The notes: generated from the letters alone by a model not told the origin. A stretch of DNA of 64,000 nt from Anaerolineae bacterium (GCA_022822545.1 JAJEBE010000040.1:124001-188000); one strand, 5' to 3'; positions 7,622 through 22,210 are shown, numbered from the stretch's first letter. Translations and numbers: made by a program.

Positions 7622-8329
7622 ATGTTCTCGGACATTCGCACTGCCTTTTCCTTCCTCACGATCCTGCCGCTCGGCGCAGCCGACTGGGGAAAGCCCGGTC
7701 GCGCATTCGCCTGGTTTCCGCTGGTCGGCTTGTGCATCGGCGCCTGTCTGGTCGCTATCGCGCGCTTCTCGCCTTTTGATCGCGATCTCAGCGCCTTTCT
7801 CATCCTGCTCGCCTGGGTCGTCATCAGCGGGGGCCTGCATCTGGACGGCTTCGGCGACTGCTGCGATGGCTTGCTGGCGAGCAAAAGGCCGGAAGAGCGC
7901 CGCCAAATCATGAAAGACCCGCGCGTCGGCGTCTGGGCTGCCGCCGGCTTGATTCTCCTGCTGCTCGGCAAATGGCTGGCGATACGCGCCGTCCCGCTTG
8001 AGATGTTGATTTTAGCGCCAGTGCTGGGGCGTTGGGCGATGGTCTGGGCGGTTCACCGGTTTCCCTCTGTCACTAGCGACGGCCTAGGCGCGGCCTTTCG
8101 ACAAGGATTGGGCTGGCAACAGGTTTTCATCGCTTCCGCCACTGTGACCCTGCTGGTCACGACCGTAGAAATCGTCGCCCTCTGGCTATCCATCTACTGC
8201 TGCACAATGTTGTTGGGACGTTGGGCGGCGAGGCGGCTCGGCGGCGGCATCAGCGGCGATGTCTGCGGCGCGATCTGCGAGTTGAGCGAGTTGCTATGTC
8301 TGCTGGCGCTGGCTGTGATTCATGGCTAA
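7622..8329 (+). CDS. cobS: Adenosylcobinamide-GDP ribazoletransferase
   Basis: The 235-residue polytopic membrane protein carries the CobS signature: FLTILPLG near the N-terminus, GGLHLDGFGDCCDGL with its metal-binding acidic residues near 75-88, and KDPRVGVW. CobS joins adenosylcobinamide-GDP with alpha-ribazole (phosphate) to complete the nucleotide loop of cobalamin at the membrane. It overlaps cobU by eight bases, so the two are cotranscribed and coupled. The presence of just cobS and cobU suggests late assembly or salvage rather than full de novo synthesis here. I looked for a cobalamin riboswitch in the 135 bases upstream and saw no B12 box. Confidence 0.93.
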   Translation: MFSDIRTAFSFLTILPLGAADWGKPGRAFAWFPLVGLCIGACLVAIARFSPFDRDLSAFLILLAWVVISGGLHLDGFGDCCDGLLASKRPEERRQIMKDPRVGVWAAAGLILLLLGKWLAIRAVPLEMLILAPVLGRWAMVWAVHRFPSVTSDGLGAAFRQGLGWQQVFIASATVTLLVTTVEIVALWLSIYCCTMLLGRWAARRLGGGISGDVCGAICELSELLCLLALAVIHG

Positions 8330-8864
8330 ACGGCTGATCTTCCTGCTCGGTGGCGCGCGTAGCGGCAAGAGCCGCTATGCCGAGCAATGGGCGCGGAGAA
8401 ATGCCGAGCGCGCGCTCTTCGTCGCCACCGCCGAGGCGCATGATGAAGATATGCGGCGGCGCATCGCCGAGCACCGTCAGGAGCGCCCGGCACACTGGCA
8501 TACGCTGGAAGCGCCACGCGATACCGCGCGGCAGATAGCGGCTTGCAGCGCGGGGCATGATACGCTCTTGCTCGATTGCCTGACGCTTCTGACGAGCAAT
8601 ATCCTGCTCACGCTGCCGGAGGGCGCGACACAGACTGAGGCGAATGATGCTGTCCTGCGCGAAGTCGAGCGCCTGCTGGCGGTCTACGCCGATTCAGACG
8701 CGACCTGGCTGGTGGTCAGCAACGAGGTGGGGATGGGCGTCGTGCCGCCGACGCGATTGGGGGTCCTGTATCGGGATATGCTGGGGCGGGCGAATCAGCG
8801 GTTGGCCGAGGCGGCGGATGAGGTGCTGCTGTTGGTGGCGGGGATTCCTTGGCGGTTGAAGTGA
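8322..8864 (+). CDS. cobU: Bifunctional adenosylcobinamide kinase/guanylyltransferase
   Basis: The 180-residue product has the CobU P-loop GGARSGKSRYAE near residue 10, ALFVATAEAHDEDM with the catalytic region around residues 35-48, RRRIAEHRQERP, LLLDCLTLL near residue 87, VVSNEVGMGVVP, and the C-terminal GRANQRLAEAADEV. It phosphorylates adenosylcobinamide and transfers GMP, producing the substrate of CobS, encoded just upstream with an eight-base overlap. The length is typical. The AT-richer defence block begins immediately downstream. Confidence 0.94.
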   Translation: MAKRLIFLLGGARSGKSRYAEQWARRNAERALFVATAEAHDEDMRRRIAEHRQERPAHWHTLEAPRDTARQIAACSAGHDTLLLDCLTLLTSNILLTLPEGATQTEANDAVLREVERLLAVYADSDATWLVVSNEVGMGVVPPTRLGVLYRDMLGRANQRLAEAADEVLLLVAGIPWRLK

Positions 8865-8938: not shown

Positions 8939-11900
8939 ATGAAACATGATCCATTCTACGGAAAGATTATTGAACGTCTCAATGGACAGCTTGATCCAAA
9001 TACGTTTGAGGCTTGCGTCGTAGATCTGCTTCGCACACAAGACGGACTATTTGCTGTACCCATCCCAGGCGGCAGCGATAGTGGAATGGACGGTGCGGTC
9101 GCCGATTTTGAAGGTGAGCCGTTTCCCGTGGTTACAACAACTGCCAAGGACGTTATCGGTAATCTAAGAAAAAACTTAGATCGATACAAGGCAGATGGTG
9201 GATCGAAAAGAACGTGTATCGTAGCTACATCACAAAAACTTACACAGGAAAGACTTGACAATCTTACAGACCGCGCCGCTAAACGTGGATTCACGCTAAT
9301 TCAGAGACTAGAACAATCTGCTATCGCGTCGCGACTTTACCATGCGTCTTATTGGTGCAAAGAACTTCTTCATTTGACGGGTAAACCCTCGGCGTTGTCG
9401 GTTATCCCTGTGACTCACCGACCGTTACCAGGATTTGAACTCATCGGACGTACCGAGGCGAGGGATTGGCTCCGAAACTCTGATGGAGACAGACTGCTTG
9501 TTGGTGAACCCGGTGCAGGAAAGACTTCGCTGCTTCATGAGTTTGCGATAGATGAAGAAAATCGAGCCTTGTTTGTAGTCAGCCACGACGAAGGCGAAAT
9601 TGCCAATGCGGTTCGGGATCAAGAGCCTAAAGTACTAATCGTAGATGACGCCCATGCAGACATTAATTTCCTCACCAAACTCAAGCAGCTACGCCAAGAA
9701 ATCTCTGCTGACTTTGATATCTTGGCCACGAGTTGGAAGGGAGACGGGCCAGAGATAGCGCATAAATTATATGCCACGCCAGAGAAAGTACACGAGTTGA
9801 AGCGATTGACACAAGATGAGATTGCGGAAATCGCAATTAACGCGGGCATAACCGGAAATCACTGGCTCGTTAACGAAATTGTGCGACAAGCTGCAGGTTT
9901 GCCTGGACTTGCCGGAACCCTGGCTTATTTCGCTTTACAAGGTCGATGGCGGGAAATTTACACCGGAGAAGCCTTAGCAACCGATATCACTACATTCTAT
10001 AAGAACAGAGTCAGCGGCGATGTTGCAGGTTTGCTAGCGTGTTTTGCGCTTGGTGGAAATTCTGGGATGGGCAAAGACACTGTTTCCAAAACGATAAATA
10101 TGCCGATACTTCAACTGCGACAAGACCTTTCAAATCTTGCACACGGTGGCATTATTGCGGAAGTGCCAATCAGAAAAGATTTCATAAAAGTTCGCCCATC
10201 TGCGCTGCGGCATGCTCTTATTCGAGACATCTTTTTCTCAGGCCCCGATACATTGCCTGAAACTTGCCTTCAAGACTTAATTGCTGCTGCACCAGATGAC
10301 GTTGATACCGTCAGAGAACTCATCGACGTAAGACGACGCTGGGGAAATGTGCCGCCAAACCTGATTCAGAAACATCTAAAAGAGTTCATAGCAGAAATGA
10401 TGCGTTGGATTCCTATACTACCGTCTTCTCCCTTGGGGTACAGCACTCCTTCACTTAAAGCTGTGAGAGAGTATGCTTGGCTGGGATCCGAAGAAGCGAA
10501 TTGGGTTACTGATAATTTCACTGCAAACCTTTCAAACGTAGCAAGACCCTTACTGCAAAATGTACCTGAGCGTGTCATTCCCTGCTTACTCACTGAAGCA
10601 ATTGGTGACAATCGCCCTTTGAACTCTAACACGGAGCATCCACTTCGGCTTCTTCAGGACTGGATAAAGCAGGCGCATCCGGGAACAGCGGAGCCGCTCC
10701 AACGCCGCGCGAAGATCTTGCACGCTACCAAAACTTGGTTGTCCGGTGGCCATGACACCGCCATCGGTTACAGCGCTATGCTCTTGGCAGTACTACCGCA
10801 TTTTGACTTTTCCGAAAATCAACCAGGAATCGACGGTTCGATTAGAATCTACAGCGGTTTCTTGATCCATGAACATCTGGTAAAGCTACAGGAATATTGG
10901 GAAGAGATAATCGAATGTGCGCGAGTTTACACGGCGTCAAACTGGGAGGAATTCCTTAGTACGGTCGGCAGTTGGGCATACCCGTATCATGGAAACGGTC
11001 CAGACGAGAACACTCGAAAAATGATGACTGACTTTGCGCAAAGAATGGCGTTTGATGTCGCAGAAGTGGCTTCTGAACACGTTGGTGTTCTTCATCGACT
11101 TAAGGCTTTAATGGACAGATCATATCCCGATTTTGAGATCGTTACAGATGATGCAATTGAAATTCTTTATCCGATTGAAAGGCTGGAAAACGACTGGGAG
11201 AAACAGGAGAGTAACTGGAAAGAAGATGCCGACAAACTCGCTGATCAATGGGCTTTACGTAAGCCAATAGAAGTTGTCGCACAAATTGAGCATATTGAAT
11301 CTGAGATAAGCAAGGCGGGCAAGAGTTGGCCTCGATTGACACCTCATTTGTGTTGTCGACTCGCAGAAAAGACGTCTGATCCTTTAAGGTGGTTCGAGGC
11401 CATGTTGCCAACAACTTTACCAGTAGATACGGTTTTTCCCTTCTTGCTTGAAGCAGTCGAGCAAAATATAGCAGGATGGGAACACGCTTTAGAATCAGCT
11501 TTCGATACAGCCAGACTTAAGGCAAGCGCTATGTCCATCATCCTGACAAAAGATGACGTTACGATGAATCTCAAACTCAATGCAATGCGAGATGCAGCCC
11601 AGTTTCCCAATTTGATTGAACAATTGGTTCGCTCAAATCGTCTGTCGAAGGCAGTCACTGTTGAATTGTATGAACACGCAGATAAATCGCTAGCCAGTAA
11701 AGTCGCATTATCGCAGTGGAAACAGAATGACAGTGGCGGAATACCAAGCTGGATTCGATCGCAATGGGAAGAAGCCATTATTAATCACGCAGCTGCAGAT
11801 TATCAGGGGGAAGACTTTCAACTGGGAGAGATCTTTGCCTCTGAGCCCTCGCTAGGAAAGAAATGGCTTGTACAAAATTTCAAGGACGATTCCTTTGAGC

Positions 11901-12379
11901 CTTTCAAATTTGAAAAGAGCATAGATAGTGTGATTGCAAGCTTGACCGGACCGTCGCGCCAAGAGTTACTTGAGTTAATTCCGGAGGGCTACCGTTGGCG
12001 CTCGACTGCGGCAGCATTAGTAGGTGACAGCCCCGAGCTATTTGAAAAACTCTTAAGCTTACCGCGTAACGAACTTGATGTTCTTGCGCCTCTCTCTCGA
12101 TCCATGATTGATTCGGTGTGGATGGCGTTCGCTAAACTAGCATTTCAACATGGACATTCGGAGGCAAGTATCGCTTCTTGTGCGTTCACTAATTCTTCTA
12201 CCTGGTCAGGAAGATACTCTGACATTGTGAAAAGTCAGTACAAGCAGTTTGAGCGATTTTGTAGCGACAATGACGAAATAGTGCGGCGAATAGCCAACGC
12301 TGGAAACGAATATTTTTCCCAACAGTATGAGTACTGGCGCAAAAGAGAGAGAGACGAAGATGTATTCGGCCGGGATTAA
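8939..12379 (+). CDS. STAND/NACHT-like NTPase with N-terminal nuclease-like domain (putative defence protein)
   Basis: This 1146-residue protein starts at the ATG at 8939, with AAGGAA 11 bases upstream. Residues ~15-140 resemble a restriction-endonuclease-like domain: a helix (FEACVVDLL), GGSDSGMDGAV, then VVTTTAKDVIGNLRKN in place of the usual E-x-K strand. A P-loop NTPase follows, with Walker A GEPGAGKTS near 190-198 and Walker B VLIVDDAH near 233-240. The rest is helical and repeat-like, as expected for a sensor domain. This nuclease-ATPase-sensor layout is that of STAND-type anti-phage proteins. Base composition is clearly more AT-rich than the flanking genes, a sign of transfer. It runs convergently into an Mrr gene 20 bases away. 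Function is inferred from architecture. Confidence 0.75.
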   Translation: MKHDPFYGKIIERLNGQLDPNTFEACVVDLLRTQDGLFAVPIPGGSDSGMDGAVADFEGEPFPVVTTTAKDVIGNLRKNLDRYKADGGSKRTCIVATSQKLTQERLDNLTDRAAKRGFTLIQRLEQSAIASRLYHASYWCKELLHLTGKPSALSVIPVTHRPLPGFELIGRTEARDWLRNSDGDRLLVGEPGAGKTSLLHEFAIDEENRALFVVSHDEGEIANAVRDQEPKVLIVDDAHADINFLTKLKQLRQEISADFDILATSWKGDGPEIAHKLYATPEKVHELKRLTQDEIAEIAINAGITGNHWLVNEIVRQAAGLPGLAGTLAYFALQGRWREIYTGEALATDITTFYKNRVSGDVAGLLACFALGGNSGMGKDTVSKTINMPILQLRQDLSNLAHGGIIAEVPIRKDFIKVRPSALRHALIRDIFFSGPDTLPETCLQDLIAAAPDDVDTVRELIDVRRRWGNVPPNLIQKHLKEFIAEMMRWIPILPSSPLGYSTPSLKAVREYAWLGSEEANWVTDNFTANLSNVARPLLQNVPERVIPCLLTEAIGDNRPLNSNTEHPLRLLQDWIKQAHPGTAEPLQRRAKILHATKTWLSGGHDTAIGYSAMLLAVLPHFDFSENQPGIDGSIRIYSGFLIHEHLVKLQEYWEEIIECARVYTASNWEEFLSTVGSWAYPYHGNGPDENTRKMMTDFAQRMAFDVAEVASEHVGVLHRLKALMDRSYPDFEIVTDDAIEILYPIERLENDWEKQESNWKEDADKLADQWALRKPIEVVAQIEHIESEISKAGKSWPRLTPHLCCRLAEKTSDPLRWFEAMLPTTLPVDTVFPFLLEAVEQNIAGWEHALESAFDTARLKASAMSIILTKDDVTMNLKLNAMRDAAQFPNLIEQLVRSNRLSKAVTVELYEHADKSLASKVALSQWKQNDSGGIPSWIRSQWEEAIINHAAADYQGEDFQLGEIFASEPSLGKKWLVQNFKDDSFEPFKFEKSIDSVIASLTGPSRQELLELIPEGYRWRSTAAALVGDSPELFEKLLSLPRNELDVLAPLSRSMIDSVWMAFAKLAFQHGHSEASIASCAFTNSSTWSGRYSDIVKSQYKQFERFCSDNDEIVRRIANAGNEYFSQQYEYWRKRERDEDVFGRD

Positions 12380-12399
12380 GAAGAGAATCAAGACCAAAG

Positions 12400-13296
12400 T
12401 TATAGGTCATTGAAGAACTTTACATTGACCATTACACGCTCGGCGATGAACCGCACCGTTTTCACACCAATCCCAAGTTCCTTCAGCTTTTCGATTAATT
12501 GCTCACCGTCAACAAGATCAATTTCAGGTGCGCCATCACGTGTAGCTTCACGTGTCGCGGCTGGTGTAAAGTTTCCGGTAGTAACAATCAAGCCCTTGTC
12601 GGTGCGCCCAACCATAGCACCGCGAAAATCGCGAACAACGCCTGCCCCGATGGATCCCTTGTACCGTTTGCATTGAAAGAGCACCTTGAACGAAAGGAAA
12701 CCACCGATTCGCATAACACCAATGCCGTCAATACCACCATCTCCGCTTCGTCCAGTGACCTCAACCTGAGTAAAGCCGCTTTCTCGCAGAATCCGCTGGA
12801 ACAGTCGCTCGAAGGCAGATGGATCCATTTCCGAAAGCACGGTATAAAGCTGTTCCTGCCAGGACTCGTCGCCGGCAGATTCATCGATTTCGATTAAGTT
12901 TTCCGCATCGTTAATCGAAACGGCTGACTTCTTTTTGGATTCTTTTTCTTGTCTTATCTGCTCACTGACGACGCGATCAACTTCCTTGTGATCAACTTCG
13001 GTTGTGCCACGACCCTGGAGCGTAAGCGACCAAACGCCCTTGCGGGAGTTTTCAAGCAAGCCATATCGCTTTAGCCAGGTTCGTACCCACCCAAGCCGAT
13101 ATTTGATATCAGTCGGACTGTTCGGGCGGGGGCCATGCGGCAAGGCAATCTCTTCCTCGGTGAGCCCCAGGCTGGTTACCACTTCATCATGAATCTCGTG
13201 AATTGTGGCCGAGCCGCCCAGCTTGTGGAGAGCCTGCAATGTGCCATCATATAGTTGCTGATATGAGACTTTGTTCATGGCTCGGTCACGATCCAT
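12400..13296 (-). CDS. mrr: Mrr-type restriction endonuclease
   Basis: The product is 298 residues from the ATG at 13296, which has GGGGA eight bases upstream inside the end of the preceding gene. A later Met at 13278 is also possible. The N-terminal ~90 residues form an Mrr_N winged-helix region (LYDGTLQALHKLGG, then GWVRTWLKRYGLL). A charged linker follows, and then the Mrr catalytic PD-(D/E)xK domain: FERLFQRIL, GRSGDGGIDGIG with the catalytic Asp, FQCKRYKG with the Q-x-K motif, and GLIVTTGNFT. Mrr enzymes cut modified DNA (type IV restriction). It is coupled to a degenerate paralogue upstream and faces the STAND gene convergently. Confidence 0.9.
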   Translation of the reverse strand: MDRDRAMNKVSYQQLYDGTLQALHKLGGSATIHEIHDEVVTSLGLTEEEIALPHGPRPNSPTDIKYRLGWVRTWLKRYGLLENSRKGVWSLTLQGRGTTEVDHKEVDRVVSEQIRQEKESKKKSAVSINDAENLIEIDESAGDESWQEQLYTVLSEMDPSAFERLFQRILRESGFTQVEVTGRSGDGGIDGIGVMRIGGFLSFKVLFQCKRYKGSIGAGVVRDFRGAMVGRTDKGLIVTTGNFTPAATREATRDGAPEIDLVDGEQLIEKLKELGIGVKTVRFIAERVMVNVKFFNDL

Positions 13297-13297
13297 T

Positions 13298-13870
13298 TCA
13301 TACATCCCCAAACCAATCGCGCTCAATAATTACCCGCTCGACGACGACCTGCTCCGTCCGCACGCCCAACTCCAACTCCTTCAACTTCCCGACCAACTCC
13401 TCGCCATCGATCAGCCGGATCTCCGGCGCGCGCTCATTGGCTGCTTTCAAGACCGCCTCCTGCGTGAAGCGCCCCGTGGTGATGAGCAAGCCCTTGTCCG
13501 CCCGGCCGACCATCACGCCGCGCCGAAAATCATCCACCTGCGCCGAGCTAATCCGTCCGCCACCGCGGATGCAGCGGAAGGACACACGGAAGGACAAGAA
13601 GCCGCCGCCGCCAAAGACGCCCATCCCCTCAATCGTATCATTGGCGTGGCTGACATCGATATCGCTGACGCCATCCTTGCCCAGCACGCGCAGGATCAAG
13701 CGCTCAAAAGCCTCGGTCGGCATCTGCTCCAGGACATCCGTCAACTCATCGCGCCAGCGCAGAATGCTTTCCAACAACTCTTGCGCGTCGACCGGCGCCT
13801 CGTCCGCCCCCGCCTGCGGCGCCTCGGCTGCTTCGATAATCTCCATTTGCTGTCCATCTTGTTCGCTCAT
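13298..13870 (-). CDS. Mrr catalytic-domain paralogue with degraded active site
   Basis: The start is taken at the ATG at 13870 with AGGAAAGG five bases upstream, giving 190 residues. The body aligns over its whole length with the catalytic half of the neighbouring Mrr (EAFERLILRVL, GGGGFLSFRV, MVGRADKGLLITTGRFT, LIDGEELVGKLKELELGVRT). It lacks the winged-helix domain. At the active site, GDGGIDG has become NDTIEG and QCKR has become RCIR. The catalytic Asp and Lys are therefore replaced (D to E, K to I), and nuclease activity is unlikely. It may be a regulatory or structural partner of Mrr. The mrr start codon lies one base beyond its stop codon. Its composition is GC-rich like the host. Confidence 0.82.
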   Translation of the reverse strand: MSEQDGQQMEIIEAAEAPQAGADEAPVDAQELLESILRWRDELTDVLEQMPTEAFERLILRVLGKDGVSDIDVSHANDTIEGMGVFGGGGFLSFRVSFRCIRGGGRISSAQVDDFRRGVMVGRADKGLLITTGRFTQEAVLKAANERAPEIRLIDGEELVGKLKELELGVRTEQVVVERVIIERDWFGDV

Positions 13871-13905: not shown

Positions 13906-14904
13906 TCATTCGTTCGCCAGGCTTGTCACCAGCAGGTCAAGCGCCAGACGCGGCTCGATCCGCCCGGTCTTGATATCTTGATCGTAGCGCTGCAGCCGCT
14001 TGAGTATCGCATCCAATTGCTCGGCTTGAAAGCGCCGAGCCTGCGCCGGCAACTTGCGCGCGGCGAAGGGATGCGCCCCCACCGCTTTGGCAAGGACCGA
14101 AGGTTGGGCGCCGCCGCCCCGATCCAGGTGATCGCGGGTCATGAGCAGGAGGCGAAACTGCCGCGCGATCAGCATGAACAAGCCGAAGCCGGGATCACGC
14201 GGATTGTCGCGCAGCGATTGCTGAATCAACTCCAGCGCCCGCTTGCCATTGCCGACCGCGAGCGCGTCGACCATTTCAAAGACATTCGCCTCGGGCACGT
14301 AGGGCGTCAAGACCGCGACATCCTCCTCGCTGATGGGCCGCTCGCCATCGACATAGGCGACCAGCTTGCACAGTTCGTTATCGGCGCGCAGCAGATCGTC
14401 ATTGACGACATCGGCAATGGCATGGGCGGCGCGCGGACTGATCTCGGCCTCATATTCAGCCTTCGCCCGTTGCTGTATCCAGCGCGTCAGATTCTGCGGC
14501 TTTTTGAACTCGCCGATGAAGCCGTTGCTCATCTCCCGCGCCGCTTTGAGAACGCGATTGCTACCGGACAGCGTATCATCTTCCACCAGCACGAGCCGCG
14601 CAAACTCGGGCAAGCGCGGCAATTCCTCGATCAGCCGGTCGGCGGCCAGCCGGCCCGCTTGGCCCGCCCCTTTGCGGGTGATATGACCGATCAAGCCGCG
14701 GGCGATCACCAGGCGTTTATCCGCCAGAAATGGCAGTGACCTGGCCGCCGCCAGCACTTCGGGCAGGGGCGTCACAGCCCCATCGAATTCCGAGCGGTTG
14801 AGATCGCCGTCCTCGCCCAGCGAGCGCCGCATCCGCGCCAGCGCTTCACCACGCCGGATGAGATCATCGCCGTGAAAGATGTAGAATTGCGGCGTCGCGC
14901 TCAT
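13906..14904 (-). CDS. holA: DNA polymerase III subunit delta
   Basis: The 332-residue protein matches the HolA clamp-loader family. It has an N-terminal FYIFHGDD, a FLADKRLVIARGL strand-turn region, LVLVEDDTLSGSNR, an EYEAEISPRAAHAIADVVNDD segment, ADNELCKLVAYV, VFEMVDALAVGNGKRALELI and the C-terminal helical collar ending in GRIEPRLALDLLVTSLA. Delta opens the beta sliding clamp as part of the clamp loader. It is directly downstream of the DUF6391 gene (six-base gap), on the same strand. Confidence 0.92.
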   Translation of the reverse strand: MSATPQFYIFHGDDLIRRGEALARMRRSLGEDGDLNRSEFDGAVTPLPEVLAAARSLPFLADKRLVIARGLIGHITRKGAGQAGRLAADRLIEELPRLPEFARLVLVEDDTLSGSNRVLKAAREMSNGFIGEFKKPQNLTRWIQQRAKAEYEAEISPRAAHAIADVVNDDLLRADNELCKLVAYVDGERPISEEDVAVLTPYVPEANVFEMVDALAVGNGKRALELIQQSLRDNPRDPGFGLFMLIARQFRLLLMTRDHLDRGGGAQPSVLAKAVGAHPFAARKLPAQARRFQAEQLDAILKRLQRYDQDIKTGRIEPRLALDLLVTSLANE

Positions 14905-19609: not shown

Positions 19610-20194
19610 ATGACTGAAGACCGCCAGCCAATGTTCAGCCAGCGCTACGCCGACGGCGACATGCCTTGGGATAGCGGCATCACCCCGCCCGAGATCATCG
19701 ACATCCTCGCCGAGTTGTCGCCGGGCAAGGCGCTCGATCTCGGCTGCGGCACTGGCACCGTCATCCGCGATCTTCTGAATCAGGGCTGGCAGGCCGATGG
19801 CATCGACTTCGTGCCGCGCGCGATCGAACTGGCGGCCGCCAAACTTGCCGACTGCCCGCCCGATTCATACCGCCTCGTCTGCGGCGATGTCACGCGCCTG
19901 GCTGATCTGCCCGAACTGCGCCGGCCCTACGATCTCATCATCGATATCGGCTGCGGCCACAGCATCGACAAGGCGCTGAACGAAGCCTACGCCGCCGGCA
20001 TCACAAATCAACTCAAGCCGGGCGGCAGCTTCATGCTCTACGCCAGCCATCCCCGTCCCGAATCGACAGTCGGCTGGACGCCCATGCAGCTTGCGCGGCT
20101 CTTCAACGGCAAGCTCGACTTGTTCTGGGAGCAGCGCAGCTATGATGCGGGACTTGGCGTCGCCGCGAGTTGGTATCGCTGGCGGAAGCGCTAA
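19610..20194 (+). CDS. Class I SAM-dependent methyltransferase
   Basis: The 194-residue product from the ATG at 19610 (MTEDRQPMFSQRYADG) has the Rossmann methyltransferase motifs. Motif I is ALDLGCGTGTVIRDLL near residue 40, motif II is DGIDFVPRAIELA with the acidic ribose-binding residue, YDLIIDIGCGHSI forms motif IV, and LKPGGSFMLY is motif VI. The opening MPWDSGITPPEI resembles thiopurine or tellurite-resistance-type small-molecule methyltransferases. The substrate is unknown. A TTG 12 bases upstream is a possible but less likely start. Confidence 0.85.
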   Translation: MTEDRQPMFSQRYADGDMPWDSGITPPEIIDILAELSPGKALDLGCGTGTVIRDLLNQGWQADGIDFVPRAIELAAAKLADCPPDSYRLVCGDVTRLADLPELRRPYDLIIDIGCGHSIDKALNEAYAAGITNQLKPGGSFMLYASHPRPESTVGWTPMQLARLFNGKLDLFWEQRSYDAGLGVAASWYRWRKR

Positions 20195-20207
20195 AGGCGC
20201 TTAAAAC

Positions 20208-20213
20208 TATAAT
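20208..20213 (+). promoter_or_regulatory. Candidate -10 hexamer ahead of the glycosyltransferase
   Basis: TATAAT ends seven bases before an ATG at 20221 that opens a four-codon frame (MIKF, stop at 20233). The real gene starts 11 bases later at 20245. The element could drive transcription with the tiny frame as a leaderless leader peptide. The evidence is the hexamer and its spacing only. Confidence 0.3.
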
Positions 20214-20244
20214 TAGCGGCATGATCAAATTCTAAGATCAGCTT

Positions 20245-21456
20245 ATGCCATTTGAATCGACAATACACAAACCGATACTCCCTCGCTCAAGACTGTGGTG
20301 GCTTGGTCTTGTGCTACTGCTATTGTTGGCCGGCTGGCTCTATTTCCGCGGCTACAATGCGAGCTTGCCCTTTATTAAGCACGTCGACGAACCACATCAT
20401 CTGCTAGCAGCGCAGCTGACGATAGACGATGGCAGCGCGCGAAGAGTCAACCACGAAGCCTATCCGCCAGGTGTGAGGACTCTCAACTATTTACTGCTCA
20501 AGCATGTCAAGCCCCCAGAAGCCCATCACGGCACGATGCTGCCCGCCCTTCGCCTCATTACCATTACAGCCTGGATGCTGGTCGTGGTGGTCATTGCGCT
20601 TCTAGGTTCAATGATAAGTCATCCCTTGACCGGACTGATGTCGGCAGCAATTTGGATTGTCAATCCTTGGGTCGTCGAGCGAGCGCGCTGGGCGCTGCCA
20701 GATGGCTTTTTGACGCTTTTCACGTTACTGGCATTGTGGCTGGCATTAGTCGGCTGCTTGCGGTGCCGCCGCAGTTTCAGCACAGCGGCGGTCTACAGTA
20801 TCATGTTGGCGATTGTATTTAAGACGCAGGCGCTTTTTGTCGCACCACTTATTCTGTTGCTGCCGCTCATAAACTTGTCGAGAATGCCAGAACGGCGCAA
20901 AGATGTATGGCAGTTGACTTTCTGGAACAGTTTGCGATTTGCTGTATTCCTATTTTGGCTGCTTCTGATATACCCAACGCTAGAAGCCAATAACATTCCA
21001 TATTGGGCTGCGCCAACAGACAGCGTTTCGCTCCCTTCTGTTCAGGTGATTTTGCATAATCTGCTGCCGGTGTTACAGAGTTTTCAATCGCTCCACGTCT
21101 GGATGGGACAACTATTGCTAACCGCTCTTTTTTGGCGCTATAGGCAACGCATAAACGGCATCGTTCTTATCGTCCTGATTGTTAGCGGACTATGCTGGCT
21201 CATCGGCATCAGCCTATTTGGAATGCAGGACTTGCGCCAATTTTTCGTGTTAGGCGCTATGCTGGCACTGCTTTACGCAATGGGTTTTACTGTATTGAGT
21301 TACTTGCTTGAAGAAGCATTAACACACCTGCCCCCCCCCCGCCGCGCAACAATTATTGCTGCGTTTTCGCCTAGTCTTAGCCACAAGCATCATTACCATA
21401 TTTTTCGCCATCTGTCTGCTGCCCTCTTATCGCGAATCGGATGCGCTAGCGCATAA
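20245..21456 (+). CDS. Polytopic glycosyltransferase, N-terminal part before a frameshift
   Basis: This 403-codon frame is the membrane part of a larger enzyme. It has a signal-anchor (LWWLGLVLLLLLAGWLYF), an acidic loop motif KHVDEPHHLLAA like the D-E catalytic loop of GT39/PMT-type glycosyltransferases, and about nine membrane segments. In the last 40 residues the reading frame leaves the hydrophobic pattern just after ALTHLPPP. The cause is a run of ten C at 21331-21340. With nine C the frame continues directly into the downstream 284-codon frame, giving a single protein of about 654 residues. Composition is somewhat AT-richer than its neighbours. It may be phase-variable, inactivated, or an assembly artefact. 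Confidence 0.72.
   Translation: MPFESTIHKPILPRSRLWWLGLVLLLLLAGWLYFRGYNASLPFIKHVDEPHHLLAAQLTIDDGSARRVNHEAYPPGVRTLNYLLLKHVKPPEAHHGTMLPALRLITITAWMLVVVVIALLGSMISHPLTGLMSAAIWIVNPWVVERARWALPDGFLTLFTLLALWLALVGCLRCRRSFSTAAVYSIMLAIVFKTQALFVAPLILLLPLINLSRMPERRKDVWQLTFWNSLRFAVFLFWLLLIYPTLEANNIPYWAAPTDSVSLPSVQVILHNLLPVLQSFQSLHVWMGQLLLTALFWRYRQRINGIVLIVLIVSGLCWLIGISLFGMQDLRQFFVLGAMLALLYAMGFTVLSYLLEEALTHLPPPRRATIIAAFSPSLSHKHHYHIFRHLSAALLSRIGCASA
21331..21340 (+). repeat. Homopolymer C10 tract inside a glycosyltransferase gene
   Basis: Ten consecutive C residues lie exactly where the two halves of the glycosyltransferase gene change frame. Removing one C joins the frames (Leu-Pro-Pro-Pro then Ala-Ala-Gln-Gln-Leu-Leu). 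Tracts of this kind are classic slippage sites and also classic sequencing-error sites. Confidence 0.9.
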
Positions 21457-22210
21457 CTTCACGCTGCACGACCGCCGCAATGACCTGGCAACATATATGG
21501 ACACATCTCTTCCACCAGGCATGTATATCGCCAATTATGACAATCACAAAACATTTAACCGCGCTTGGGGCGGTTACAACGGTCAACATGACTTCCTATG
21601 GTTAAAGCCCTCGGCTGCGCTGTCCGACAAGCCCATTTCAGAGTGGCGCGAATTAGGGGTTGAATACGCTATTATGCCGCATCTGCCGCTGTTGGTGGAC
21701 GCCGATATTTATTCTCCGAACGAAACTACTCTGCTGAAGACCTATCCCATAGACCCCAACTTCCGCGGACCCGATATGGTCGTCCTTCGCCTATACCCGA
21801 TGCAATTCGCTGCGACCGGACAACTCGGCCCCATCCACCTCGTCGGCTATGATCTCAATGCCACTCAGCTACCGCCCGGGGGCGACCTCGTCTTCCGCCA
21901 CTATTGGCGCGCCGACTCTCCCACCGCTGCCCCCAAGCGGGTCTTCAACCACTTGCTGGACAGCAAGGGCGAACTTGTCGCTCAAGTCGACTACATCCCT
22001 TTATTCGACGAGCGCCGCTCCACCAGCACTTGGGACGACCCCGACGAGATCCTGCTAGGGCGCGAATTCATCCTAAACCTGCCCGCCGACTTAAGACCCG
22101 GCCACTATACGCTGACGAGCGGCTTAAACGATGCGGAGACCGGCATACTGCTGGCGCCCGACGGCAGCGATCGTCTCCATATCGCCACGATCACCGTCAT
22201 TGACGCCTAG
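21356..22210 (+). CDS. Glycosyltransferase C-terminal part (after the frameshift)
   Basis: This frame has no convincing start of its own (the first candidate is a TTG at 21356) and is best read as the second half of the gene beginning at 20245. It opens with a final membrane helix (TSIITIFFAICLLPSY). A soluble domain follows (YMDTSLPPGMYIANYDNHKTF, EWRELGVEYAIMPHLP) and then a C-terminal beta-sandwich with HLVGYDLN, FNHLLDSKGELVAQVD and LPADLRPGHYTLTSGL. That last pattern is widespread in large membrane glycosyltransferases of Chloroflexota. Both the hydrophobic and the soluble part are intact once the frame is restored. Confidence 0.72.
   Translation: MLRFRLVLATSIITIFFAICLLPSYRESDALAHNFTLHDRRNDLATYMDTSLPPGMYIANYDNHKTFNRAWGGYNGQHDFLWLKPSAALSDKPISEWRELGVEYAIMPHLPLLVDADIYSPNETTLLKTYPIDPNFRGPDMVVLRLYPMQFAATGQLGPIHLVGYDLNATQLPPGGDLVFRHYWRADSPTAAPKRVFNHLLDSKGELVAQVDYIPLFDERRSTSTWDDPDEILLGREFILNLPADLRPGHYTLTSGLNDAETGILLAPDGSDRLHIATITVIDA

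What the first reader, a model, noticed from the sequence alone, without database searches (positions are those of the whole stretch)
8939..13870. AT-rich defence block: STAND NTPase facing an Mrr nuclease and a catalytically dead Mrr paralogue
A 1146-residue nuclease-domain/NTPase/helical-sensor protein ends 20 bases from a convergent Mrr gene. The Mrr is translationally coupled to a shorter paralogue with the active-site changes GDGGIDG to NDTIEG and QCKR to RCIR. A paired live and dead Mrr module beside a STAND protein looks like a composite anti-phage locus. The dead copy could bind DNA or inhibit or activate Mrr. The first gene and mrr are AT-richer, the dead copy is GC-rich, so they may have different origins.
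Basis: partly seen in the sequence, partly recalled or inferred. Interest (0 to 1): 0.62.

Follow-up and report, generated by a model that had tools for sequence, protein, structure and literature searches.

The report
Dead Mrr guarding a swappable Mrr
In a genus of Chloroflexota bacteria, many of them from marine sponges, every species keeps the same inactive copy of a DNA-cutting defence enzyme next to a spot where working versions of that enzyme are constantly swapped, which suggests, but does not prove, that the dead copy keeps the live ones in check.

Summary
A 1146-aa STAND-type ATPase (8939-12379, +) meets a live wH-Mrr endonuclease (12400-13278, -) 20 bp apart. Behind Mrr lies a dead, wH-less Mrr paralogue (dMrr, 13298-13870, -), directly 3' of holA. 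The composite STAND+Mrr+dMrr system is not supported. dMrr is a genus-specific core gene: present and intact in 32/32 congeners where holA was recovered, always dead, always beside holA, omega 0.132 (holA 0.141), and tracking holA (Mantel r 0.82). Live Mrr lies in a variable slot between dMrr and cobU: intact in 22/32, AT-rich, and unrelated to species phylogeny (r 0.00). Its wH and catalytic domains do not even track each other (r 0.06). STAND is an independent, occasional occupant: beside Mrr only here, replacing Mrr in two congeners, elsewhere in three. Best reading: a defence-exchange slot anchored by a vertically inherited pseudo-nuclease that most likely restrains whichever Mrr allele arrives, by mixed oligomers. 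The architecture is well supported (about 0.9); the brake mechanism is inference (about 0.4). A test for relaxed dMrr evolution where live Mrr is missing was negative, so a Mrr-independent role stays open.

The parts
8322..8864 (+). cobU, conserved left anchor of the variable slot
   Evidence: Pfam CobU 1e-56; flanks the slot in nearly all congeners
8939..12379 (+). STAND-type protein, 1146 aa: REase-like N-domain without conserved Lys, P-loop GEPGAGKTS, long helical C-terminal part; occasional slot occupant
9503..9529 (+). P-loop (Walker A) GEPGAGKTS of the STAND protein
   Evidence: invariant G189, P191, G192, G194, K195 in 6 relatives
12400..13278 (-). live Mrr endonuclease, 292 aa; alternative ATG at 13296
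   Evidence: Pfam Mrr_N and Mrr_cat; intact D-D-Q-K residues
13003..13263 (-). Mrr_N winged-helix domain of live Mrr (residues 6-92)
12490..12837 (-). Mrr_cat domain of live Mrr (residues 148-263), with D180, D184, Q202 and K204
13298..13870 (-). dMrr: dead Mrr catalytic domain without winged helix, 190 aa from ATG 13870 (195 aa from ATG 13885); genus core gene
13628..13630 (-). dMrr Glu86, in place of the second catalytic Asp (D184 of Mrr)
13568..13570 (-). dMrr Ile106, in place of the catalytic Lys of QxK (I, L, V or M in all congeners)
13906..14904 (-). holA (DNA polymerase III delta), conserved right anchor, 35 bp upstream of dMrr
   Evidence: NCBIfam holA 2e-62; beside dMrr in all congeners

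Best explanation
The locus is a defence-exchange slot between two conserved anchors, holA-dMrr on one side and cobU on the other. Live AT-rich Mrr alleles (type IV, modification-dependent restriction) come and go by recombination in this slot, and other defence genes such as this STAND protein occasionally enter it. The fixed anchor gene dMrr is an old, vertically inherited Mrr catalytic domain that has lost its active site and its winged helix but keeps the fold. Proposed mechanism (inferred): dMrr joins the catalytic domain of whichever Mrr is present to form mixed, inactive oligomers. This holds a new allele back from the host's own methylated DNA until modified foreign DNA recruits the enzyme. 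Shown here: fold, dead active site in every congener, fixation, purifying selection, position, and allele swapping of the live partner. Inferred: binding to Mrr and inhibition of it.
For: dMrr is present and intact in 32/32 congeners whose holA was found; the two without it also lack a holA match. Its active site is dead in all of them: Lys replaced by I/L/V/M and the second Asp by Glu (one Asp), while W44, the DFR/GRxDKGL/TTGxFT core and the C-terminal end stay shared with live Mrr. AlphaFold2 gives an intact alpha-beta-beta-beta-alpha-beta core (pLDDT 79, pTM 0.68), nearest to the MspJI and AspBHI nuclease domains. omega is 0.132 against 0.141 for holA. dMrr distances track holA (r 0.82, p 0.0002); live Mrr does not (r 0.00, p 0.48), nor do its two domains track each other (r 0.06). 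The species nearest by holA (94%) has a Mrr only 54% identical, while a more distant one (69%) has 79%. Mrr GC3 is 0.53 against 0.80 for dMrr, genus-wide. In E. coli, Mrr activity is proposed to be set by oligomeric state, inactive tetramer to active dimer, and Mrr is host-toxic when triggered (PMC12707154), which gives an inactive catalytic-domain subunit an obvious point of action.
Against: dMrr persists in 7 congeners with no live Mrr in the slot (2 with STAND only, 4 with winged-helix-only remnants, 1 with a second dead Mrr) and 2 with broken Mrr, without detectable relaxation (7 vs 22 terminal branches, p 0.67). No co-variation between dMrr and the live allele (r 0.01), although a brake on a conserved surface need not co-vary. 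The spacing dMrr-Mrr varies, so co-translation is not general. No complex was modelled and no protein was tested.
Confidence: 0.4

Rival explanations
1. dMrr is a domesticated housekeeping protein that no longer has to do with Mrr, for example a DNA or replisome-associated factor co-transcribed with holA. Its neighbourhood merely happens to be a recombination hotspot.
For: Fixed next to holA in all congeners with a holA-like rate; not relaxed where live Mrr is absent; not adjacent to holA in the sampled sister genera, so a lineage-specific innovation.
Against: The slot beside it is filled with Mrr-family genes rather than random genes, and these keep arriving next to a Mrr paralogue. No housekeeping role is known for a wH-less Mrr domain.
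Confidence: 0.33
2. dMrr is a partner subunit rather than a brake: a mixed Mrr/dMrr enzyme has one working active site and so nicks, or changes its target choice; or dMrr is a decoy for phage anti-restriction proteins aimed at Mrr.
For: Live and dead REase copies are paired in known conflict systems (iREase plus active REase beside Orc/CDC6; PMC10853773), and inactive enzyme copies are proposed as decoys or dominant negatives (PMC7159879). Core surface residues are shared between dMrr and Mrr.
Against: A required subunit should be lost when the enzyme is lost; it is not. No anti-Mrr protein of phages of these hosts is known.
Confidence: 0.15
3. One reading: STAND, Mrr and dMrr form one composite anti-phage system.
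For: Adjacency in this window; STAND sits next to dMrr in three congeners counting the window. In a fourth, STAND is preceded by a degraded cobU 3' end, so it once lay in or copied this slot.
Against: STAND and live Mrr are together only here; elsewhere STAND replaces Mrr or lies at unrelated loci without Mrr. 28 of 34 congeners lack STAND. The genes are convergent, not co-transcribed.
Confidence: 0.05
4. dMrr is a decaying pseudogene or a neutral relic.
For: Active site lost; winged helix lost.
Against: omega 0.132; catalytic-domain identity 0.77 across the genus; fold predicted intact; intact in 32/32.
Confidence: 0.01

Closest known systems
Mrr type IV (modification-dependent) restriction endonuclease, EcoKMrr
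   Same: Live gene has the same Mrr_N winged helix plus Mrr_cat with PD-QxK site (PMC12707154)
   Different: E. coli mrr is not described with a dead paralogue in the passages read; here a wH-less dead copy accompanies it in every congener
Enterobacterial immigration control region (ICR) between yjiA and yjiN
   Same: Conserved anchors with swapped restriction genes, mrr among them (PMC12707154)
   Different: Here the slot is small, almost always Mrr-family, and one anchor is itself a dead paralogue of the cargo
Inactive REase domains (iREase) in conflict systems, such as the Orc/CDC6 systems and Pfam NA-iREase1 (PF22722)
   Same: Dead REase fold paired with an active REase (PMC10853773); dMrr matches PF22722 at 6e-7 and live Mrr at 9e-13
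   Different: dMrr is a standalone, vertically inherited core gene, not a domain of a mobile system or a NACHT protein
MspJI / AspBHI nuclease domain
   Same: Nearest solved folds to the dMrr model (Foldseek E 4e-6 and 2.7e-4)
   Different: Those are active and fused to an SRA-like domain
STAND NTPases with REase-like N-domains
   Same: N-domain, P-loop, helical C-terminal part
   Different: No Pfam, PADLOC or NCBIfam family above cut-off; no conserved ExK/QxK lysine

Membership tests
Mrr type IV endonuclease (gene 12400-13278) | Mrr_N winged helix + Mrr_cat domain | tested here: met
   Pfam 5e-16 and 2e-31, both above gathering score
Mrr type IV endonuclease (gene 12400-13278) | intact PD-QxK active site | tested here: met
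   GDGGIDG...FQCKR, conserved in relatives
Mrr type IV endonuclease (gene 12400-13278) | cuts modified DNA | not testable with these tools
   needs biochemistry
Mrr endonuclease (dMrr, 13298-13870) | Mrr_cat fold | tested here: met
   Pfam 5e-13; AlphaFold2 REase core
Mrr endonuclease (dMrr, 13298-13870) | catalytic residues | tested here: not met
   second Asp to Glu, Lys to I/L/V/M in 32/32
Mrr endonuclease (dMrr, 13298-13870) | winged-helix domain | tested here: not met
   no Mrr_N match, 190-195 aa
Toxin-antitoxin or immunity pair (dMrr as inhibitor) | inhibitor always present where the toxic partner is | tested here: met
   no slot Mrr without dMrr, but dMrr is universal so this is weak
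Toxin-antitoxin or immunity pair (dMrr as inhibitor) | inhibitor lost or relaxed when the partner is lost | tested here: not met
   dMrr kept in 7 genomes without live Mrr, no relaxation (p 0.67)
Toxin-antitoxin or immunity pair (dMrr as inhibitor) | binding and inhibition | not testable with these tools
   needs complex modelling or experiment
STAND NTPase | P-loop and conserved Asp of Walker B | tested here: met
   invariant GxPGxGK and D236 in 6 relatives
STAND NTPase | match to a curated STAND/NACHT model | tested here: inconclusive
   nSTAND3 22.7 bits, below the 27.2 cut-off
STAND NTPase | active nuclease effector domain | tested here: inconclusive
   weak Mrr_cat-like N-domain, E 0.013-0.11; no conserved Lys; structure model poor
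Defence hotspot with conserved anchors (ICR-like) | conserved flanks, variable defence cargo | tested here: met
   holA-dMrr and cobU flanks; Mrr alleles, STAND, winged-helix-only genes or decayed copies inside

The most novel reading that the evidence does not exclude
A lineage has turned a dead nuclease paralogue into a permanent universal immunity protein at a defence-exchange slot, so that foreign Mrr alleles with new specificities, even new domain combinations, can be taken in without killing the cell. The anchor gene makes the swapping safe.
Probability: 0.3. Interest if true: 0.8.

Novelty: new variant of a known kind. Interest (0 to 1): 0.55.

Why it matters
Defence hotspots are usually bounded by housekeeping genes that have nothing to do with the cargo. 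Here one boundary is a fixed dead paralogue of the cargo, under holA-like constraint. If it tames incoming Mrr alleles, it would explain how toxic modification-dependent nucleases can be swapped freely, and would give a direct test of how cells survive a new restriction specificity.

Tried and rejected
(1) Composite STAND-Mrr system: rejected on distribution. (2) Recent duplication of the neighbouring mrr: not supported; dMrr is one clade outside all live copies, which mix with live Mrr of other Chloroflexota (two long branches make the deepest order unsure). (3) Dead copies elsewhere: a phylum sample of 400 genomes gave only live QxK copies, and the genome-contig scan gave 31 loci, matching the 31 congeners. 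(4) Relaxed selection on dMrr without live Mrr: no effect, p 0.67. (5) STAND structure: poor model, pLDDT 54 with 3 sequences, no fold search made. (6) STAND in plasmids and viral contigs: none. (7) dMrr family profile against PDB sequences: none. (8) First IQ-TREE runs failed on the thread setting and were repeated. (10) Literature searches found no description of a fixed dead Mrr paralogue; the library is open-access only.

Full report
What is there. The window holds cobS-cobU (+), a 1146-aa STAND-type gene (+, 8939-12379), a convergent Mrr (-, 12400-13278), a short Mrr paralogue (-, 13298-13870, here called dMrr) and holA (-, 13906-14904). Mrr has a winged helix (Mrr_N) and a catalytic domain with GDGGIDG...QCKR; dMrr has only the catalytic domain with NDTIEG...RCIR.

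Where it comes from. Related loci are Chloroflexota/Anaerolineae metagenome-assembled genomes. Some isolate names (COS, RHO, CAR, APA) fit the sponges sampled in PMC8163846, but that link is my inference from the names.

dMrr is a core gene of the genus. A search of the own genome and 60 relatives found dMrr in 32 of 34 genomes of the genus; the two without it also lack a holA match, so the region may be missing or divergent. In all 32 it lies directly downstream of holA. Six genomes of other genera (three of the same family) have holA without dMrr beside it. A phylum sample of 400 genomes gave only live copies (QCKR, QAKR, QSKR) outside the genus. The tree of catalytic domains puts all dMrr in one clade apart from all live copies (100/99 support; the deepest order is unsure because of long branches).

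dMrr is dead but not decaying. The catalytic Lys is I, L, V or M and the second Asp is Glu (one Asp) in all 32. Its omega is 0.132, that of holA 0.141. AlphaFold2 gives a confident core with the REase order of helices and strands, residues 1-29 being disordered; Foldseek's best matches are MspJI and AspBHI.

The live gene is swapped. Between dMrr and cobU there is a slot of about 0.7-3.6 kb (13.5 kb in one genome). It holds an intact live Mrr in 22 of 32 genomes; a broken one in G004 and G015; a contig break in G018; STAND only in G001 and G019; winged-helix-only or fragmentary Mrr in G002, G012, G020 and G032; and a second, wH-bearing dead Mrr in G007. Live Mrr is AT-rich genus-wide (GC3 0.53 against 0.80 for dMrr). 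Among 21 genomes, protein identities of dMrr and holA go together (r 0.82, Mantel p 0.0002); those of live Mrr and holA do not (r 0.004, p 0.48), and the winged-helix and catalytic domains do not go with each other (r 0.058, p 0.23). The closest pair by holA with the window (94%) has Mrr at 54%, while a species at 69% in holA has Mrr at 79%. This is allele and module exchange at a fixed place.

STAND is a guest. Relatives occur in 6 of 34 congeners: in the slot in three (with Mrr only here), and in three at other loci without Mrr. In G029 the gene, on a contig with ParA-like and replication-like genes, is preceded by a degraded cobU 3' end (LSTRLGNLYRDILECSDQKTAERANEVRSLAAEFSWRLQ*), so this copy came out of a cobU-STAND arrangement. 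Two distant relatives in the phylum have no Mrr near. Its N-domain is weakly Mrr_cat-like, with an invariant GMD but no conserved lysine, and the poor structure model still shows a helix, three strands, helix, strand order, so it may be an inactive REase domain too. No STAND-Mrr functional unit is needed.

How it most likely works. E. coli Mrr is proposed to switch from inactive tetramer to active dimer, and is self-harming when triggered by host methylation (PMC12707154). A dead catalytic domain of the same family, expressed constantly from the holA side, could form mixed oligomers with any Mrr allele through the shared core (shared residues listed) and keep it quiet until modified foreign DNA recruits it. 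This would let the cell accept new alleles. Shown: anatomy, fixation, constraint, swapping. Inferred: contact and inhibition. Counter-evidence: dMrr stays where live Mrr is lost, without measurable relaxation, so a function apart from Mrr is a serious rival (0.33). Mrr losses may be recent and reversible at such a slot, which would leave the brake under selection; this was not tested.

What is known. Swapping of mrr and other restriction genes between fixed anchors is known from the enterobacterial immigration control region. Inactive REase domains paired with active ones, and inactive enzymes as decoys or dominant negatives, have been proposed (PMC10853773; PMC7159879). A fixed dead Mrr paralogue as slot anchor was not found in the held literature.

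Verdict. Observation confirmed; composite reading not supported; the live/dead pair is more interesting than claimed, as a genus-wide fixed pseudo-nuclease beside a swapped live one. New variant of a known kind, interest 0.55.

Noticed in passing
L026:7903-8124, L029:4498-4722, L031:1574-1804, L032:8553-8768, L038:3585-3812, L044:7717-7944, L040:9401-9640: A conserved 65-90 aa protein (MxxxDTDALxFExRLSALEERSxSxATKEDL...KADLIKWFIGTQIALAALIIYLLQ), predicted coiled coil plus membrane helix, lies in the slot, mostly between dMrr and Mrr, in several congeners but not in the window.
   Followed up: partly
L043:8374-9330 and L045:3202-4524: Further dead Mrr proteins: G007 has a winged-helix Mrr with S-E-Q-L instead of D-D-Q-K; G027 has two Mrr_N domains plus a divergent dead catalytic domain.
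   Followed up: partly
L035:4194-4967, L042:11609-12013, L038:2777-3202: Winged-helix-only (Mrr_N) genes without nuclease sit in the slot next to dMrr; G002 has two Mrr_N domains in one ORF.
   Followed up: partly
L066:6416-6535: Degraded 3' end of cobU directly upstream of a STAND gene on a contig with ParA-like and replication-like genes in G029.
   Followed up: yes
L024:6481-18872: In G013 a roughly 12.5 kb block that looks metabolic by its ORF sequences (ABC transporter, phosphorylase-, amidohydrolase- and dehydrogenase-like) separates dMrr from Mrr.
   Followed up: no
L042:8824-9759: IS1595-type transposase inside the slot of G012.
   Followed up: no
L067:2665-12899: STAND relative in G011 near a recombinase-like ORF and a patatin-like ORF; possibly a second defence cluster.
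   Followed up: no
window 20001-21500: A second AT-rich patch (GC about 0.51) against about 0.60-0.63 around it.
   Followed up: no
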